Source: Oscillospiraceae bacterium (GTDB lineage: Bacteria > Bacillota > Clostridia > Oscillospirales > Oscillospiraceae). From it: a stretch of 38,718 nucleotides of DNA. The position numbers and the translations under genes were made by a program. A model generated the notes under the pieces. It was not told the origin of the DNA, ran no database searches, and was given only the letters and a program-made list of their open reading frames with translations. How positions within the stretch are numbered: position 1 is the stretch's first letter; each line of letters opens with the position of its first letter. Of this stretch, positions 1 through 37,847 are shown one piece after another. The stretch lies in the NCBI GenBank assembly GCA_017411225.1, contig JAFRDQ010000101.1, positions 1 through 38,718 on the forward strand, written 5' to 3'.

Positions 1-122
1 GCCCCGCTTGGTCGGCGCGAGAGGCTCGCGTCACGCGAGCCTGAGGGAGATTTTTCGCCGCATATGTCGCCGAAAAATCGGATTTCAATTTTATTCGCGC
101 ATTCGCGCGAACTCTGCGAGGC
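1..122 (+). repeat. Structured repeat family A, copy 1 (left end cut by window)
   Basis: Shares an ordered series of hairpins and conserved words with copies at 5821-5969 and 35542-35688. Seen here are GGTCGGCGCGAG, a hairpin AGGCTCGCG-tca-CGCGAGCCT, the quasi-palindrome at 50-78 centred on GCATATG, a hairpin TTCGCGC-attc-GCGCGAA, and the conserved tail AACTCTGCGAGGC. The arms differ from the other copies but still pair. The tail's GAGG (118-121) lies six bases before the NUDIX start codon, so the repeat appears to provide that gene's ribosome binding site. The reading frame of the NUDIX gene is open through the repeat back to position 8. Confidence 0.8.
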
Positions 123-3183: not shown

Positions 3184-3260
3184 GTAGGGCGGGTTGCGTC
3201 AGCGCCCGCCTGTGAGATTCTGCTGGTGGTAACAGGCGGGCGCTTCGCAACCCGCCCTAC
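3184..3260. repeat. Palindromic repeat family C, copy 1
   Basis: A 77-bp inverted repeat with arms of about 29 bp, starting GTAGGGCGGGTTGCG and ending CGCAACCCGCCCTAC. A second copy with the same arms and a different central loop lies at 15339-15416. It sits between the plsC-like promoter and the 3' end of recQ, which makes it a REP/MITE-like dispersed element. Confidence 0.85.
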
Positions 3261-3289
3261 GCATTCTCTTTGAGATGATTAGATTGTTG

Positions 3290-5574: not shown

Positions 5575-5766
5575 ATGATGACTGTTGACGAAATCCGCGC
5601 TCTGGGTCTGAGCGAGGAGGCCATCGCCGAGCTCACCGGCGGCGCCGAGAAGATCGAGCTCGTGCGCGACGGTATGCCCTGCCCCCTCTGCGGCCTGACC
5701 GAGACGATCTGGTTCGCCCCCGCCACGGGCAAGCACGTCTGCATGGACTGCCACTATGTATTTTAA
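5575..5766 (+). CDS. Small zinc-ribbon protein of unknown function
   Basis: A 63-residue protein. The N-terminal half looks helical (MTVDEIRALGLSEEAIAEL) and the C-terminal half carries CPLC (residues 36-39) and CMDC (56-59), a four-cysteine knuckle expected to bind one zinc. The strong AAAGGAGG at 5558-5565, its own promoter and the following terminator argue that it is a real, independently transcribed gene. I know no function for it. It is divergent from lexA and may share its control region. Ribbons of this kind can bind nucleic acid or protein; neither can be settled from sequence. Confidence 0.75.
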   Translation: MMTVDEIRALGLSEEAIAELTGGAEKIELVRDGMPCPLCGLTETIWFAPATGKHVCMDCHYVF

Positions 5767-5781
5767 GGCGCATCCGCGCCC

Positions 5782-5820
5782 AAAATGAGAGCCCGCCACA
5801 ACGTGGCGGGCTCTCATTTT
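5782..5820 (+). terminator. Intrinsic terminator of the zinc-ribbon gene
   Basis: A perfect 17-18 bp stem (5782-5799 with 5803-5820), starting AAAATGAGAGCCCGCC and ending in TTTT. Repeat A copy 2 starts directly after its 3' arm. Confidence 0.85.
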
Positions 5821-5969
5821 GATACTCGCGCTCCATCGCCCTCGCTTCGCTCGGTTGGTCGGCGCGAGAGGCGTGCGTCGCGCACGCCCGAAGGAGTTTT
5901 TCCGCCGCACATGTCGCCGGAAAAACGGATCCGATTTGATTCGCGGCAAAGCCGCGAACTCTGCGAGGC
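5821..5969 (+). repeat. Structured repeat family A, copy 2
   Basis: Complete copy of about 149 bp. In order: outer pair CTCGCGC/GCGCGAG; hairpin GGCGTGCG-tcg-CGCACGCC; quasi-palindrome TTTTTCCGCCG...GCCGGAAAAA (5897-5925) around CACATG; hairpin TTCGCGGC-aaa-GCCGCGAA; tail AACTCTGCGAGGC. Compared with copies 1 and 3, several stem bases differ on both arms so that pairing is kept. It follows a terminator and is followed by another hairpin. Confidence 0.85.
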
Positions 5970-15229: not shown

Positions 15230-15256
15230 GTTTTCAACTCCCCAAAGAGAACGTAG

Positions 15257-15416
15257 GGGCGGATATCATCCGCCCGCGCGGGACACGGTGAAATAATCCA
15301 CCGTTCTCCGGCGCATTCGCAATTGGTAACCGTTTGCTGTAGGGCGGGTTGCGGCAGCGCCCGCCTGCTGGATTGAGGCTGTTGGCAAGAGGCGGGCGCT
15401 TCGCAACCCGCCCTAC
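15257..15416. repeat. Palindromic repeats upstream of malL, including family C copy 2
   Basis: The 283-bp gap 15230-15512 holds a small hairpin GGGCGGAT-atc-ATCCGCCC (15257-15275) and the second copy of family C (15339-15416), whose arms match 3184-3260 almost base for base while the central loop differs. Between them GTAACCGTTTGC (15326-15337) resembles a MalR/LacI-type operator half-match upstream of malL; this is weak. Confidence 0.8.
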
Positions 15417-15473
15417 GACGCATCTTTCAGCGCGGCAGAGAATCGTACAGGAGATTGAAACCTGCCGATTGAA

Positions 15474-33533: not shown

Positions 33534-34120
33534 AGATTCTCGTCGTCGCGGACATCAAAAGCCCGTTTTTTTTCGACTGCTATACCCCCGGCAAGCTCAA
33601 GGAATTTGACCTGATCCTATCCTGCGGCGATCTGTCGAAGGAGTATCTTGAGTTTCTCGTCACGATGGCGCGCTGCCCGCTCTATTACGTCCCCGGCAAC
33701 CACGACGAATCATTCGATCTCCACCCGCCGGAGGGCTGTGAGAGCGTCGACGGCAGACTCATCGAATATCAGGGCGTGCGTATCCTCGGCCTCGGCGGAT
33801 CGTATCAATACCGCCCCGGCTCGCAGCAGTATACCGAGCGGCAGATGGCGTCCCGCATCCGCCGTCTCAATTGGACGATCCGGCGGCACATGGGCTTTGA
33901 CATTCTCCTCACGCACGCCCCGGCAAGGGGAATCAATGATCTCGACACCCCCGCCCATCGGGGCTTCGAGTGCTTCAACGATCTCATCGACCGCTGGCAG
34001 CCGAAATACCTTCTCCACGGCCACGTGCACCTCAATTACGGCATGAACCTGCCGAGGAAGGCGGAGAGAGGGCAGACAAAGATTGTGAATGCGTATGAAT
34101 ATAGCGTGATTGAGATTTGA
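33530..34120 (+). CDS. Calcineurin-like metallophosphoesterase with altered first motif
   Basis: A 196-residue single-domain phosphoesterase. Motifs seen: D8 in ADIKSP, GD (33-34), GNHDE (56-60), LTHAP (H129) and HGHVH (163-167). The family's first motif is D-x-H; here the histidine is lysine (K10), so one ligand of the first metal is missing while the rest of the site is intact. It may use one metal or bind a different substrate; YfcE-like and nucleotide phosphodiesterases share the fold. It is coupled by a 4-nt overlap to the BMP-domain gene, suggesting the two work together, perhaps on a nucleoside-related molecule (inference). Confidence 0.82.
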   Translation: MKILVVADIKSPFFFDCYTPGKLKEFDLILSCGDLSKEYLEFLVTMARCPLYYVPGNHDESFDLHPPEGCESVDGRLIEYQGVRILGLGGSYQYRPGSQQYTERQMASRIRRLNWTIRRHMGFDILLTHAPARGINDLDTPAHRGFECFNDLIDRWQPKYLLHGHVHLNYGMNLPRKAERGQTKIVNAYEYSVIEI

Positions 34121-34123
34121 AAT

Positions 34124-34345
34124 GAATTAGGAATTAGGAATGAGGAATTAGGAATGACCAAACTTGTCATTCTGAGCGGAGCACGGAGTGCGAAGTCGAA
34201 GAATCTTGGCAGAGAGGTAAGACAGAGGCCGGCTGTTCTCTTTTACTGCTCTGCCAAGATCCCTCGACAAGCTCGGGATGACAAATGTTTGCTGCGCATG
34301 AACCATTTGTCAATTCCTAATTCCTAATTCCTCATTCCTAATTAG
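34124..34345. repeat. Palindromic repeat family B, copy 3 (long form)
   Basis: About 222 bp. TTAGGAAT-type heptamer arrays at both ends in inverse orientation, inside them TGTCATTCTGAGCGGAGC with inverse CTCGGGATGACAAATG, and AATCTTGGCAGAG with inverse CTCTGCCAAGAT. The structure is that of a nested-inverted-repeat MITE with no coding capacity. Together with the promoter it accounts for the gene-free stretch 34121-34519. Confidence 0.88.
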
Positions 34346-34419
34346 TTCCAAGCTCTGCTCATCCGCAGTAGTGCGATAAAGTATTTGCAAACTTGACCCT
34401 GAAAAAATGCATAATACAC

Positions 34420-34519: not shown

Positions 34520-35800
34520 ATGAAAAAGTATCTGGCTCTGTTGCTGGCGCTTGTGATGGTGTTCGCCCTGTGCGCATGCGGCAGCAAGAACGACCCCCCC
34601 GCCGCGGGCTCCGCTGATGCTGAGGCTCCTGCCGCCGGCAGCGAGCTGACCTTCGTCACCGGCGGTGAGTCCGGCACCTACTATGCCTTCGGCACCGTCC
34701 TCGCGCAGCACGTCAACGGCCTGACCGATACCAAGATCAACGCGGTCGCCGGCAACGGCTCTCAGGCCAACGTGGAAGACCTCGCCGCCGGTCAGGCGCA
34801 GCTGGCCTTCTGCCAGTCCGACGTGGCTTCCTATGCTTACAACGGCACCAACCTCTTTGAGGAATCCGGCGCTGTGACCGACTTCTCCGTCGTCGCGGCT
34901 CTTTACATGGAGCAGGTGCAGATCGTCACCCTCGATCCGGAGATCAAGTCCGTCGCTGACCTCAAGGGCAAGAACGTCTCCATCGGCGCTGCCGGCTCCG
35001 GCGTGTACTTCAACGCCCTCGATATCCTCGGCGCCTATGATCTGACCGAGGACGACATCAGCCCCGTCTACCAGAGCTTCGCCGATTCCGCCGACTCCCT
35101 AAAGGACGGCAAGATTGACGCGGCCTTCATCGTCGCCGGCGCTCCCACGACCGCCATCACCGACCTCGCCACCGGCAAGAGCGTCTACCTCGTCAGCCTC
35201 GATGACGAGCACATCGACAAGCTCATGGCGGCCAGCCCCTTCTATTCCAAGGTCGTCATCACCGCCGAGACCTACGGCATGCCTGAGGACGTCACCACCG
35301 TCGCCGTCGGCGCGCTCGTGCTCGCCCGCAACGACGTTCCCGACGCCGATGTTTACAACTTCGTCTCCTCCATCTTCGACAATCTGCCCGACGTCATCGC
35401 CGCGCACGCCAAGGGCGCCGAGCTGAGCGTGGAGTTCGCCTCCAGCGTCGAGGGCATCCCCTATCACCCGGGTGCTGCTCGGTACTACGCCGAGCAGGGA
35501 GAAAGGCCTCAAATCAGCGCCTGTAAGACAGGCACTGATTTGAATACTCGCGCTTATCGCGCGGGGCTTTGGCCCCGCTTGGTCGGCGCGAGGGCTCGCG
35601 TAACGCTTCGCCTCAGGGAGTTTTTCCGCCGCACATGTCGCCGGAAAAACGATTTGAATCATTTCGCGCTTTGCGCGAACTCTGCTGAGAGCTACTTGTA
35701 CTACAGGCGCTGTATCGGCGCCTGTAGTACTCCGTCTTTTTCTGCCGTTTTTATTGCTTACCAGAGTGCAGCGCTTTTGCTGCATTTTGGTAAACAATAA
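34520..35800 (+). CDS. TAXI-type TRAP transporter solute receptor with repeat-derived C-terminal tail
   Basis: A 426-residue lipoprotein: signal with lipobox ALCAC (C20), linker, then a TAXI domain with VTGGESGTYY, QSDVA, GAAGSG and the usual end YHPGAARYYAEQG at about residue 327. Family members stop within a few residues of that point. Here the frame runs on for 99 residues through a hairpin, repeat A copy 3 and a second hairpin before TAA 35798-35800; this tail is Arg/Cys-rich and unlike the domain. AAAGGAG precedes ATG 34520, and the in-frame ATG 34454 is too close to the -10. It delivers an unknown acid-type substrate to the fused permease next door. Confidence 0.88.
   Translation: MKKYLALLLALVMVFALCACGSKNDPPAAGSADAEAPAAGSELTFVTGGESGTYYAFGTVLAQHVNGLTDTKINAVAGNGSQANVEDLAAGQAQLAFCQSDVASYAYNGTNLFEESGAVTDFSVVAALYMEQVQIVTLDPEIKSVADLKGKNVSIGAAGSGVYFNALDILGAYDLTEDDISPVYQSFADSADSLKDGKIDAAFIVAGAPTTAITDLATGKSVYLVSLDDEHIDKLMAASPFYSKVVITAETYGMPEDVTTVAVGALVLARNDVPDADVYNFVSSIFDNLPDVIAAHAKGAELSVEFASSVEGIPYHPGAARYYAEQGERPQISACKTGTDLNTRAYRAGLWPRLVGARARVTLRLREFFRRTCRRKNDLNHFALCANSAESYLYYRRCIGACSTPSFSAVFIAYQSAALLLHFGKQ
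35511..35541 (+). terminator. Hairpin at the junction of TAXI domain and tail
   Basis: AAATCAGCGCCTG (35511-35523) pairs with CAGGCACTGATTT (35529-35541) with one mismatch, loop TAAGA. It resembles the terminator before repeat A copy 2, but here it lies inside the open frame. Confidence 0.5.
35542..35688 (+). repeat. Structured repeat family A, copy 3, inside the TAXI receptor gene
   Basis: About 147 bp: outer CTCGCGC/GCGCGAG, inner hairpin CGGGGC-ttt-GGCCCCG, weaker GGCTCGCG/CGCTTCGCC pair, TTTTTCCGCCG...GCCGGAAAAA (35621-35649), TTCGCGC-ttt-GCGCGAA, tail AACTCTGC. A direct repeat ATC(A/G)GCGCCTGTA flanks it at 35513-35525 and 35714-35726; the offset of 201 bp is a multiple of three. Confidence 0.85.
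35698..35736 (+). terminator. Hairpin with T-run between receptor core and permease
   Basis: GTACTACAGGCGC (35698-35710) pairs perfectly with GCGCCTGTAGTAC (35718-35730), followed by TCCGTCTTTTT. It probably lowers transcription into the permease gene; it lies within the receptor's extended frame. Confidence 0.65.
35758..35793 (+). other. Intercistronic RNA hairpin before the TRAP permease
   Basis: TTACCAGAGTGCAGC (35758-35772) pairs with GCTGCATTTTGGTAA (35779-35793), 15 bp with two G-U pairs, six-base loop. It ends just before the permease ribosome binding site and could stabilise or separate the two messages. Confidence 0.6.
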
Positions 35801-35816: not shown

Positions 35817-37847
35817 ATGTCCAAGAAGTCTAACCTGGACCCGGCGCCGCAGGTTGACGCCGTGAAGGCGGAGAGCGAGATCGTCAGCGAAGCTGAGCTG
35901 AACGACGTGATGAAGAAGTATGACCGCGAGTCGAACACCCGCATCTGGGAGGGCGTCCCGCACACCATCGTCACGACGGTCATGATCCTCTTTTCGCTCT
36001 ACTGCATCTGGTCCACGCTGTTTAACAAATCCGCGCTGGAGATTCGCCTCACGGCGTTTCTCGGCGGCATCGTCATCATGGGATTTCTCTATTATCCCGC
36101 GAGCAAAAAGCATGTCCGCCCAAATTACATGCCGTGGTATGACTGGATCATCATGATCGCGGGCGCCGCCTGCTTTTTCTACTGGTGCTTCAGCTATTCC
36201 TCGCTCGCGCGTGTGCTGACGAGCGCCACCAAGCTCTCCACGATGCAGGTGCTCATCGGCGTCGTCGGCCTGCTCACGATCTTTGAGCTCTGCCGCCGCT
36301 GCGTGGGCGTCCCGATCCTGTGCGTGCTCGGCGCGCTGCTCATTTACACGTTTGCCACCGGCCTGCCGCTCAAGCGCCTGATTTACACGCTGTTTTATTC
36401 CACCGGCGGCGTCATCGGCACGCCGGCGCAGGTCTGCGCGAAGTTCATCGTCGTGTTCATCGTCTTCGGCGCGTTCCTCGAGCGAACAGGCATCTCGAAG
36501 TTCTTCATAGACCTCGCCAACAAGATCGCCGGCTGGTCCTCCGGCGGCCCTGCGAAGGTCGCCGTCATCTCCTCCGCGCTCTGCGGCATGGTGTCCGGCT
36601 CCTCCGTGGGCAACACCGTCACCACCGGCTCGGTTACGATCCCGATGATGAAGAAAACCGGCTACAAGCCGGAGTTTGCCGGCGCGGTCGAGGCTGCCGC
36701 CTCCACCGGCGGTCAGATCATGCCGCCCATCATGGGCGCCGCCGCCTTCCTCATGGCGGAGTACATGGGCATCCCCTATGGTCAGGTCGCGCTCAAGGCG
36801 ATCCTGCCCGCCGTGCTCTATTTTGCCGGCATCTTCATCTCCGTCCATCTCGAGGCCAAGAAGCTCGGCCTCAAGGGCATCGACAAGCGCGAGCTCATGC
36901 CCGCGAAGGATCTGCTCGTCAAGGTGTATCTGCTCGCGCCGCTTATCGTGCTCGTCTGGCTCGTGAGCACCAACGCGCGCACGATGGCCTTCGCCGCCGC
37001 CGTGAGCATCCTCGTCGCCATTGCCGTCGGCATCCCGCAGACGATCGTCGACAGCGTCGTCTGGCGCCGCGAGCAGGGGAGCGGCTCTGTTGCCGCCCGC
37101 GCCGTGAAGGAGACAATCAAGACCATCGGCGCCTCGCTCGAGGCGGGCGGCAAGGGCACGATCACCGTCGCCGTCGCCTGCGCCGTCGCCGGCTGCATCG
37201 CCGGCTGCATCACGGCCACGGGTCTGGCCTCCAAGCTCATCACCGGCATCGTCGCCGTCAGCCAGAACAGCGTCTTCTTCGCCCTCTTCCTCACGATGCT
37301 CTGCTGCATCGTGCTCGGCATGGGCGTTCCGACTACCGCGAACTACTGCATCATGGCCGCTACGACCGCGCCGATCCTCATCAAGATGGGTCTGCCCGCC
37401 GTGAGCGCGCACTTCTTCGTGTTCTACTTCGGCATCGTCGCGGACATCACGCCGCCGGTCGCGCTCGCGGCCTACGCCGGCTCCGCCATCGCGAAGTCCA
37501 ACCCGATGAAAACCGGCGTCAACGCCACGAAGCTCGCCATCGCGGCCTTCATCGTGCCGTATGTCTTCGCCTTCAGCCCCGCGCTGCTGTTTGAAAACAT
37601 CAGCGGCGTGCTCGAGGTCGTGCAGATCGTCCTCACCGCCATCATCGGCATCTTCGGCGTCAGCGCCGGTCTCGAGGGCTATGTCTTCGCGAAAGCGCCG
37701 ATCTGGCAGCGCGTGCTGCTCATCGCCGGCGGCCTGAGCCTGATCTATCCGGGACTCCTGACCGACGTCATCGGCATCGGCGTCATCGCCCTCATGCTCG
37801 TCGTGCAGATGCTGCTGCGCAACCGCCAGAGAGCCGCAGTCGCATAA
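35817..37847 (+). CDS. TRAP transporter fused permease (small and large subunits joined)
   Basis: A 676-residue membrane protein. The N-terminal third has four or more helices (small-subunit part), followed by the large-subunit domain with GGPAKVAVISSALCGMVSGSS, TGGQIMPPIMGAAAFLMAEY and GMGVPTTANY, hallmarks of the DctM-type fused permeases paired with TAXI receptors. It imports a substrate by sodium or proton symport. ATG 35817 follows GAGGGG; the frame is open upstream within the receptor's tail region but has no ribosome binding site there. A terminator follows. Confidence 0.93.
   Translation: MSKKSNLDPAPQVDAVKAESEIVSEAELNDVMKKYDRESNTRIWEGVPHTIVTTVMILFSLYCIWSTLFNKSALEIRLTAFLGGIVIMGFLYYPASKKHVRPNYMPWYDWIIMIAGAACFFYWCFSYSSLARVLTSATKLSTMQVLIGVVGLLTIFELCRRCVGVPILCVLGALLIYTFATGLPLKRLIYTLFYSTGGVIGTPAQVCAKFIVVFIVFGAFLERTGISKFFIDLANKIAGWSSGGPAKVAVISSALCGMVSGSSVGNTVTTGSVTIPMMKKTGYKPEFAGAVEAAASTGGQIMPPIMGAAAFLMAEYMGIPYGQVALKAILPAVLYFAGIFISVHLEAKKLGLKGIDKRELMPAKDLLVKVYLLAPLIVLVWLVSTNARTMAFAAAVSILVAIAVGIPQTIVDSVVWRREQGSGSVAARAVKETIKTIGASLEAGGKGTITVAVACAVAGCIAGCITATGLASKLITGIVAVSQNSVFFALFLTMLCCIVLGMGVPTTANYCIMAATTAPILIKMGLPAVSAHFFVFYFGIVADITPPVALAAYAGSAIAKSNPMKTGVNATKLAIAAFIVPYVFAFSPALLFENISGVLEVVQIVLTAIIGIFGVSAGLEGYVFAKAPIWQRVLLIAGGLSLIYPGLLTDVIGIGVIALMLVVQMLLRNRQRAAVA

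What the first reader, a model, noticed from the sequence alone, without database searches (positions are those of the whole stretch)
35489..35800. Structured repeat inserted in frame at the 3' end of a TAXI receptor gene
The receptor domain ends as expected near residue 327, but the frame continues for 99 residues through repeat A copy 3. A 13-nt direct repeat with one mismatch, ATC(A/G)GCGCCTGTA, flanks the element with an offset of 201 bp, exactly 67 codons. All three copies of repeat A are open in the same frame and would encode a similar basic peptide (core FFRRTCRRKN in copies 2 and 3, IFRRICRRKI in copy 1). This recalls Rickettsia palindromic elements, which insert in frame into genes; no such element is known to me in Oscillospiraceae.
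Basis: partly seen in the sequence, partly recalled or inferred. Interest (0 to 1): 0.75.

Follow-up and report, generated by a model that had tools for sequence, protein, structure and literature searches.

The report
Hairpin element parked at gene ends
The extra protein tail is most likely a side effect of a short, non-coding, hairpin-rich repeat that is scattered by the dozen through this bacterial genome just behind gene ends, and that in some places lies between two copies of a transcription stop signal.

Summary
The sequence facts hold. The TAXI receptor frame (34520-35497) runs on for 100 codons, through repeat A copy 3, to a stop at 35798. All 80 orthologous loci examined end 4-11 residues past that point.

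The Rickettsia-palindrome reading does not hold. Of 54 full-length copies in this MAG only this one overlaps a called gene. The "FFRR" frame is open in 20 of 53 copies, fewer than either other sense frame. Lengths show no multiple-of-three bias, and the tail has non-coding codon usage.

The repeat is a ~145-bp, four-hairpin interspersed element. It usually starts a few bases after a terminator-like hairpin behind a gene, on that gene's strand (42 of 47). A close relative lacks it at 9 of 12 readable sites. In 7 of 50 copies here (all class B), and 6 of 22 places in other genomes, it lies between two copies of an inverted repeat, mostly terminator-like. This recalls IS1630, but no IS30 transposase passed the cut-off. 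Models find the family in 59 of 150 family genomes and in 1 of 388 other genomes of the class.

At the TAXI gene the last ~6 codons and the stop are missing, so the frame reads through by accident. The mobiliser is unknown.

The parts
34520..35497 (+). TAXI-type TRAP receptor coding part (326 codons), lacking the usual last ~6 codons (as in G-I-x-V-P-T-K) and stop
35498..35800 (+). 100-codon extension and stop TAA (35798-35800)
   Evidence: codon score -0.26 per codon
35509..35543 (+). Hairpin H0 TCAAATCAGCGCCTGTAAGACAGGCACTGATTTGA; a hairpin stands in this place in 52 of 54 copies
35546..35690 (+). Element core, repeat A copy 3 (145.8 bits)
35546..35592 (+). Hairpin H1 (CTCGCGC/GCGCGAG; CTCGCTT/AAGCGAG in other copies)
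35593..35612 (+). Hairpin H2
35620..35650 (+). Hairpin H3 (loop region CACATGTCGC), the source of the FFRRTCRRKN peptide
35662..35679 (+). Hairpin H4, followed by CTCTGC; the 3' end here reads TGAGAGC instead of the usual GAGGC
35698..35730 (+). Hairpin with T-run; stands where relatives have their first intergenic hairpin, but downstream of the element
35756..35794 (+). Second intergenic hairpin; relatives have a TTTACCAAA..GGTAAA hairpin in the same place
35818..37847 (+). TRAP transporter permease gene downstream
5782..5821 (+). H0 of copy 2, after a small gene whose stop is 5764-5766
5824..5969 (+). Repeat A copy 2, intergenic (142.5 bits)
2..122 (+). Repeat A copy 1, cut by the contig start (98.9 bits)

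Best explanation
Copy 3 belongs to a multi-copy, non-coding, mobile short interspersed element of the bacterial family to which this genome belongs. SHOWN: a ~136-151 bp core of four hairpins with compensatory changes; a fifth hairpin (H0, often terminator-like) directly before it; a position directly downstream of genes, mostly on the gene's strand; absence at the same site in a close relative in most cases compared; and, for half of the class B copies tested (those with hairpin H0B, GACTGTCAAAGAAC..GTTCTTTGACAGTC, and in most the right end TTTTTTGACAAGCTG or similar), a place between two copies of a terminator-like inverted repeat. INFERRED: a transposase supplied in trans recognises the terminator palindrome, cuts the two strands at opposite ends of it, inserts the element and so duplicates the hairpin. 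The upstream copy keeps ending the host transcript, so insertions are nearly neutral and accumulate behind genes; one hairpin copy may be lost later. At the TAXI gene the H0-element unit stands between the truncated coding sequence and the displaced operon hairpins. The last ~6 codons, the stop and the spacer are gone, and the frame reads by accident through the element to the next stop.
For: Copy number and structure. Gene context: 1 of 54 full-length copies overlaps a called gene; upstream neighbour on the same strand in 42 of 47, p 2.5e-8, and so within 100 nt in 39 of 47 (leaves out the window copy and 6 copies at contig ends). In 30 of those 39, H0 starts within 10 nt of the stop codon. 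H0 scores above the best of one shuffle per copy in 52 of 54; both exceptions lie within 30 nt of a contig start. Duplicated terminator-like hairpins, score at least 14, in 7 of 50 testable copies (7 of 14 class B) against 1 of 2450 mispaired flanks; and in 6 of 22 places in other genomes, three of them in the same genus, including an exact 34-nt and an exact 19-nt duplication. G009 lacks the element at 9 of 12 readable orthologous sites, 8 of them with one other terminator-like hairpin; empty sites for two duplicated-terminator copies, C88 (99% aa) and C111 (98% aa). Same context elsewhere: 34 of 34 intergenic, 27 of 33 same strand (24 of the 34 are from the same genus). TAXI: 80 of 80 orthologous loci have normal C-termini.
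Against: No mobiliser was found: IS30 transposase over the cut-off in 0 of 10 genus genomes. 43 of 50 copies, including 24 of 24 class A and 12 of 12 unclassed, show no terminator duplication; the TAXI copy is one of these. In one search, 8 of 462 mispaired flanks also reached 14; one is a locus overlapping itself and seven involve L240 or L242, which carry a second element behind the first. At the C4 site G009 has a similar hairpin without the element, at C29 its left arm only, and at C114 a hairpin with the same inner stem, so H0A may in part be a host terminator and not part of the moving unit. At C3 the element lies before the terminator without a second copy. Absence in G009 alone does not tell gain from loss. 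A palindromic target does not explain the strand bias. The genome is a draft MAG (82.6% complete) and the TAXI junction was not verified from reads.
Confidence: 0.74

Rival explanations
1. RPE-like selfish coding element: the repeat spreads inside genes in frame and adds a basic peptide to host proteins.
For: Copy 3 is in frame with TAXI, and ORFs across the three window copies share the FFRR/IFRR peptide. At C147:3870 the host stop codon lies inside H0.
Against: Only 1 of 54 copies overlaps a called gene. The frame is open in 20 of 53 copies against 37 and 24 for the other sense frames, and lengths are not multiples of three. The tail has non-coding codon usage. 34 of 34 copies examined in other genomes are intergenic.
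Confidence: 0.03
2. Host-beneficial 3' UTR or terminator module: the H0-element unit is kept by selection as a strong terminator, mRNA stabiliser or small RNA, and its spread is secondary.
For: Location within a few bases of stop codons, sense-strand bias, terminator-like H0A, compensatory changes. At C78, C107 and C114 it stands where G009 has another terminator-like hairpin.
Against: Mismatches in H0, H2, H3 and H4 show no excess of G-T over A-C (8/6, 1/2, 1/3, 1/2), which selection on a sense RNA should give. Often not shared with a close relative (9 of 12 sites absent in G009). No Rfam family above its gathering score over the copies in ten loci.
Confidence: 0.15
3. REP/REPIN-like element moved by an IS200/Y1 (RAYT-type) transposase acting on single-stranded hairpins.
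For: Hairpins flanked by GGAG/AGAG-like bases and near-perfect Watson-Crick stems suggest action at the DNA level (the tetranucleotide comparison is recalled). Y1 matches at two places in G000.
Against: G005 has 54 matches to the element model and no Y1 match at 97% completeness. Flanking duplications of 20-40 nt are not expected of this mechanism (established knowledge, recalled).
Confidence: 0.08
4. Assembly or sequencing artefact at the TAXI junction: the true genome keeps the stop codon and the element lies after it.
For: Draft MAG, with several copies at contig ends. In 30 of 30 other copies selected for a long same-strand upstream gene, the gene has its stop codon before or within H0.
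Against: Both flanks are syntenic with relatives, H0 here differs from the H0 of the other copies, and the repeat is only 145 nt.
Confidence: 0.1

Closest known systems
IS1630 (IS30 family, Mycoplasma fermentans)
   [quoted passage not shown] passages there give 16-, 23-, 25- and 26-bp duplicated junctions for four of seven copies). Here inverted repeats of about 19-40 nt lie on both sides of some copies.
   Different: IS1630 is a complete IS with a transposase and 27-bp inverted repeats (same passages). This element is ~145-210 bp and has short imperfect ends; no IS30 transposase passed the cut-off in the genus.
BOX / RUP / SPRITE repeats of pneumococcus
   Same: Short interspersed hairpin elements, overrepresented between convergent genes; BOX supplies the stop codon at the 3' end of 36 annotated genes; SPRITE is terminator-like and close to gene 3' ends (PMC3049150, passages).
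   Different: No sequence relation was tested. Here a GC-rich four-hairpin core, and a terminator duplicated on both sides in some copies, which the passages seen do not mention.
Rickettsia palindromic elements (RPE)
   Same: About 150 bp, dispersed (PMC10969869 passage); palindromic by name.
   [quoted passage not shown] Here 1 of 54 overlaps a called gene and there is no frame bias.
REP/REPIN-type elements
   Same: Hairpins, extragenic, many copies (features of REPs recalled).
   Different: Larger, with H0 and terminator duplication in some copies; no Y1 transposase in the element-rich G005.

Membership tests
Rickettsia palindromic elements | Dispersed ~150-bp hairpin-rich element | tested here: met
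   Core of 136-151 bp with four hairpins in the copies measured
Rickettsia palindromic elements | Carries a conserved peptide frame and inserts in genes in frame | tested here: not met
   1 of 54 copies overlaps a called gene; FFRR frame open in 20 of 53
IS1630-like terminator-duplicating elements | Targets and duplicates inverted repeats | tested here: met
   For class B only: 7 of 14 tested class B copies in G000, 0 of 36 others; 6 of 22 places elsewhere; empty sites at C88 and C111
IS1630-like terminator-duplicating elements | IS30-family transposase | tested here: not met
   NF033563 over cut-off in 0 of 10 genus genomes; one short match below it in G005; own genome none, but it is 82.6% complete
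MITE (non-autonomous DNA transposon) | Short, without transposase, with terminal inverted repeats | tested here: inconclusive
   Class B ends read GACTGTCAAAGAA and, reversed, CAGCTTGTCAAAAAA by eye; no formal test of the ends
MITE (non-autonomous DNA transposon) | Target-site duplication | tested here: inconclusive
   Seen in half of the class B copies tested; not seen in class A copies or in the window copy
MITE (non-autonomous DNA transposon) | Related autonomous element sharing the ends | tested here: inconclusive
   The exact H0B pattern lies beside an element copy at 12 of 12 places, in 3 of 10 genus genomes; the ~330 nt printed around 8 other right-end hits was read by eye only
REP/RAYT system | Cognate Y1 (RAYT) transposase in element-rich genomes | tested here: not met
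   Y1 matches in 6 of 10 genus genomes, none in G005 with 54 element matches; RAYT type was not distinguished from other Y1
BOX elements | boxA-boxB-boxC modules | not tested
   No BOX sequence was compared
Known Rfam RNA family | Match above gathering score | tested here: not met
   Ten loci: only a tRNA and a cobalamin riboswitch in L008 reach gathering scores, both outside its element copy; the rest are below threshold and to unrelated families

The most novel reading that the evidence does not exclude
A superfamily of non-autonomous elements in this bacterial family targets intrinsic terminators by their palindrome, inserts in the sense of the gene, duplicates the whole terminator of about 20-40 bp, and is moved by an unidentified transposase. 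Its own hairpins are kept as near-perfect Watson-Crick palindromes because the mobile form is read as DNA hairpins.
Probability: 0.5. Interest if true: 0.75.

Novelty: new variant of a known kind. Interest (0 to 1): 0.58.

Why it matters
An element that leaves a spare copy of the terminator it lands on would explain how dozens of insertions can accumulate behind genes without cutting or over-extending transcripts. Such behaviour is on record for IS1630; I saw no report of it for a repeat family in this bacterial group in the seven library searches made. Dozens of copies in one genome and a patchy distribution among relatives offer a natural series for finding the mobiliser and for testing target choice. 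It also warns annotators: tails made by such insertions can be taken for protein domains.

Tried and rejected
RPE-like coding element: rejected by gene context and frame counts.

Known RNA family: none above gathering score over the copies in the ten loci searched.

The 13-nt direct repeat as a target-site duplication: score 10.5 is below the 99th percentile of mispaired flanks. It could be a worn remnant of a terminator duplication, but this is not shown.

IS30 transposase and Y1 transposase as mobiliser: no support. Patterns of H0B and of the right end were used to look for an autonomous partner. The 12 H0B places all lie beside element copies. Of 15 right-end hits the surroundings of 8 were printed: they lay inside ordinary coding sequence, beside element fragments, or at an unrelated hairpin (C140); I saw no transposase there but did not search for one.

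Sense-RNA selection: no wobble asymmetry in H0, H2, H3 and H4. H1 has 91 G-T against 1 A-C, at invariant positions of an internal loop; it was not counted as evidence either way.

Hairpin control: the 100 nt searched behind genes with an element can include part of the element, so the score count (35 of 37 against 23 of 56) is generous; the start-position count is the safer one, and repeats it on H0 alone (30 of 39).

A description in print: seven searches of the held library. I saw no such repeat named in the listings; most subscription papers are not held. PMC94219 (IS1630) is not held.

Full report
What was checked. The window is contig C69 of a draft MAG (2,105,043 bases, 150 contigs, 82.6% complete). 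The reported features are there: an ORF open to TAA 35798-35800, the 13-nt direct repeat at 35513 and 35714, and three copies of repeat A. The TAXI receptor part is 34520-35497, and 100 codons follow it.

Orthologues. All 80 of the TAXI loci kept by the genome-contig scan (479 relatives found, 80 kept) stop 4-11 residues after the residue aligned to Q326. In the same genus, the four full-length matches in G008, G004, G005 and G002 (73-82% identity) end normally and are followed by an intergenic region with hairpins and then the TRAP permease. One search also printed two weaker matches, L180 and L181, whose alignment ends at query residue 252-255 and which end differently; they were not counted. 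In the window two hairpins (35698-35730, 35756-35794) stand where the relatives have theirs, but downstream of the element. The last ~6 codons, the stop and the spacer are missing. One of the 80, L069, has an element of the same kind in this same intergenic region, in the opposite direction, and keeps its normal stop.

The element. A DNA search gave 44 matching pieces in the own genome. Forty copies were aligned and a covariance model R1 built. It finds 77 places at E <= 0.01, of which 57 reach 93 bits and 54 reach 124 bits; these 54 are called full-length here. The consensus has 36 pairs, ten of them with changes on both sides in at least one copy: for example CTCGCGC/GCGCGAG becomes CTCGCTT/AAGCGAG. 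Among the top 57 copies (those that fitted the script's patterns), G-T and A-C mismatches occur about equally in H0, H2, H3 and H4 (8/6, 1/2, 1/3, 1/2), so nothing there points to selection on one RNA strand. H3 has 62 other mismatches (596 Watson-Crick pairs), and H1 has 91 G-T and 79 other mismatches against 634 Watson-Crick pairs, the G-T at positions that hardly vary.

Gene context. For the top 60 of the 77 places a simple codon-usage gene caller was used. Of the 54 full-length copies one overlaps a called gene: the TAXI copy. Leaving out that copy and six copies at contig ends, the upstream neighbour is on the element's strand in 42 of 47, and then within 100 nt in 39 of 47. The downstream neighbour, where there is one, is convergent in 28 and co-directional in 21 of 49. 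A hairpin, H0, scores above the best of one shuffle per copy in 52 of 54 and ends 0-13 nt before the element; the other two copies lie within 30 nt of a contig start. In 30 of the 39 copies behind a same-strand gene, H0 starts within 10 nt of its stop. As a control, in held stretches (227,430 bases) the best hairpin is strong and starts within 10 nt of the stop for 24 of 37 genes followed by an element and 7 of 56 genes without one, and it carries a GAGAG-type arm in 12 of 37 against 1 of 56. By a simple motif rule 24 H0s are class A, 15 class B and 15 other.

Frame test. The FFRR frame is open in 20 of 53 copies, the other two sense frames in 37 and 24 (one of the 54 could not be anchored); lengths of the 54 modulo three are 24, 18 and 12 for remainders 2, 1 and 0. 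The tail has a codon score of -0.26 per codon against +0.36 for the receptor, scored with a model that did not include the receptor. There is no sign of a protein-coding element. At one other site, C147:3870, the host stop codon lies inside H0.

Terminator duplication. In 50 of the 54 copies (four have too little flank) the upstream and downstream flanks were compared, with all mispaired flanks as control. Seven copies score 14 or more (C20:11085, C38, C111, C42:3051, C4:19069, C104, C88), against 1 of 2450 mispairs. In each the shared stretch covers all or part of a terminator-like hairpin. All seven are class B: 7 of 14 class B tested, 0 of 24 class A, 0 of 12 other. The shared stretch begins 14-18 nt after the GAGGC end in five of the seven. 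The nearest called upstream gene of C38 is on the other strand. In other genomes, 22 places with the end motif were found in 45 loci listed; one (L359) appears to lie in a coding sequence and is no element. Six score 14 or more: L240 and L242 (G005) and L155 (G001) in the same genus, L361 (G075), L281 (G077) and L278 (G157) outside it. L240 is an exact 34-nt duplication; L278 is an exact 19-nt one that holds only a short palindrome. There 8 of 462 mispairs also reach 14: one is a locus overlapping itself, and seven involve L240 or L242, which carry a second element behind the first. The other 43 copies in G000, the TAXI copy among them, show no such duplication.

Sites in relatives. Pieces of upstream genes were searched in four relatives and the 150-185 nt behind them compared by eye. 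G009, the closest, has 13 orthologous pieces at 90% identity or more among the loci fetched; one (C30) ends at a contig end, so 12 sites are readable. A 69% match (C34) and a hit whose locus was not fetched (C2:5901) were left out. The element is present but truncated at one site (C24). H0-like sequence without the element is seen at two (C4, and C29 with the left arm only). The element is absent at nine (C55, C78, C107, C88, C111, C147:8609, C147:3870, C114, C3), eight of them with one terminator-like hairpin. C88 and C111 are empty sites for copies with duplicated terminators. At C114 the G009 hairpin shares its inner stem with our H0. At C3 the G009 terminator corresponds to the hairpin downstream of our element, without a second copy upstream. 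G008 has an element of its own behind the C88 gene, after its own terminator.

Distribution. R1 matches 10 of 10 genus genomes at E <= 0.001; two of them, G004 and G006, have a single weak match (E 9e-6 and 4e-5). It matches 59 of 150 family genomes at E <= 1e-6, in 51 of 106 genera (short calibration, rough E-values). A second model of the conserved 3' half (R2, 23 sequences) was run on 391 genomes of the class: own, G075 and G029, the only same-family genomes in the part of the list shown, match with 11 places each, and of the other 388 one does, G342 of the same order, weakly. The locus of one of its four matches (L359) gave only an end-motif hit that looks like coding sequence, so even that genome is doubtful. 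Of 34 places looked at in other genomes (24 in the same genus, 10 in other genera), 34 are intergenic and the upstream neighbour is on the same strand in 27 of 33.

What it most likely is. A non-autonomous mobile element that lands on the terminator behind a gene; the TAXI tail is a by-product. The nearest behaviour I know of is that of IS1630, known to me from the title and passages in PMC3317919 and from recall; the original paper is not held. The pneumococcal BOX repeats, which supply the stop codon of 36 annotated genes (PMC3049150, passages), are the nearest case of repeats at gene ends. The mobiliser, the cause of the strand bias and the origin of H0A remain open.

Noticed in passing
window 3184-3274 and 15253-15430: Another intergenic repeat family, (C)GTAGGGCGGGTTGCG..CGCCCGCC, in inverted pairs; related GTAGGGG..CGGC stretches follow several copies of the element.
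   Followed up: no
window 8712, 31578, 34117-34351: AATTCCTAATTCCT / AGGAATTAGGAAT repeats between genes, in part forming a long imperfect inverted repeat (34117-34177 and 34291-34351).
   Followed up: no
L240 (G005 C32), about 1690-2110: Two elements in a row: a class B-like element between two exact 34-nt copies of a terminator-like hairpin, the second copy followed directly by a second element of the A kind.
   Followed up: partly
G000 C20:11226, C94:304, C2:6050 and others: The right end TTTTTTGACAAGCTG contains an outward-facing TTGACA, the consensus -35 hexamer (recalled); whether it forms promoters was not tested.
   Followed up: no
G009 C51:7770-7902, G009 C45:6817-6980: Variant elements with a different 5' half joined to the conserved H3-H4 3' half, suggesting modular exchange.
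   Followed up: no
L069 4960-5420: A related element in the TAXI-TRAP intergenic region of another organism, inserted in the opposite direction, with the receptor's stop intact.
   Followed up: yes
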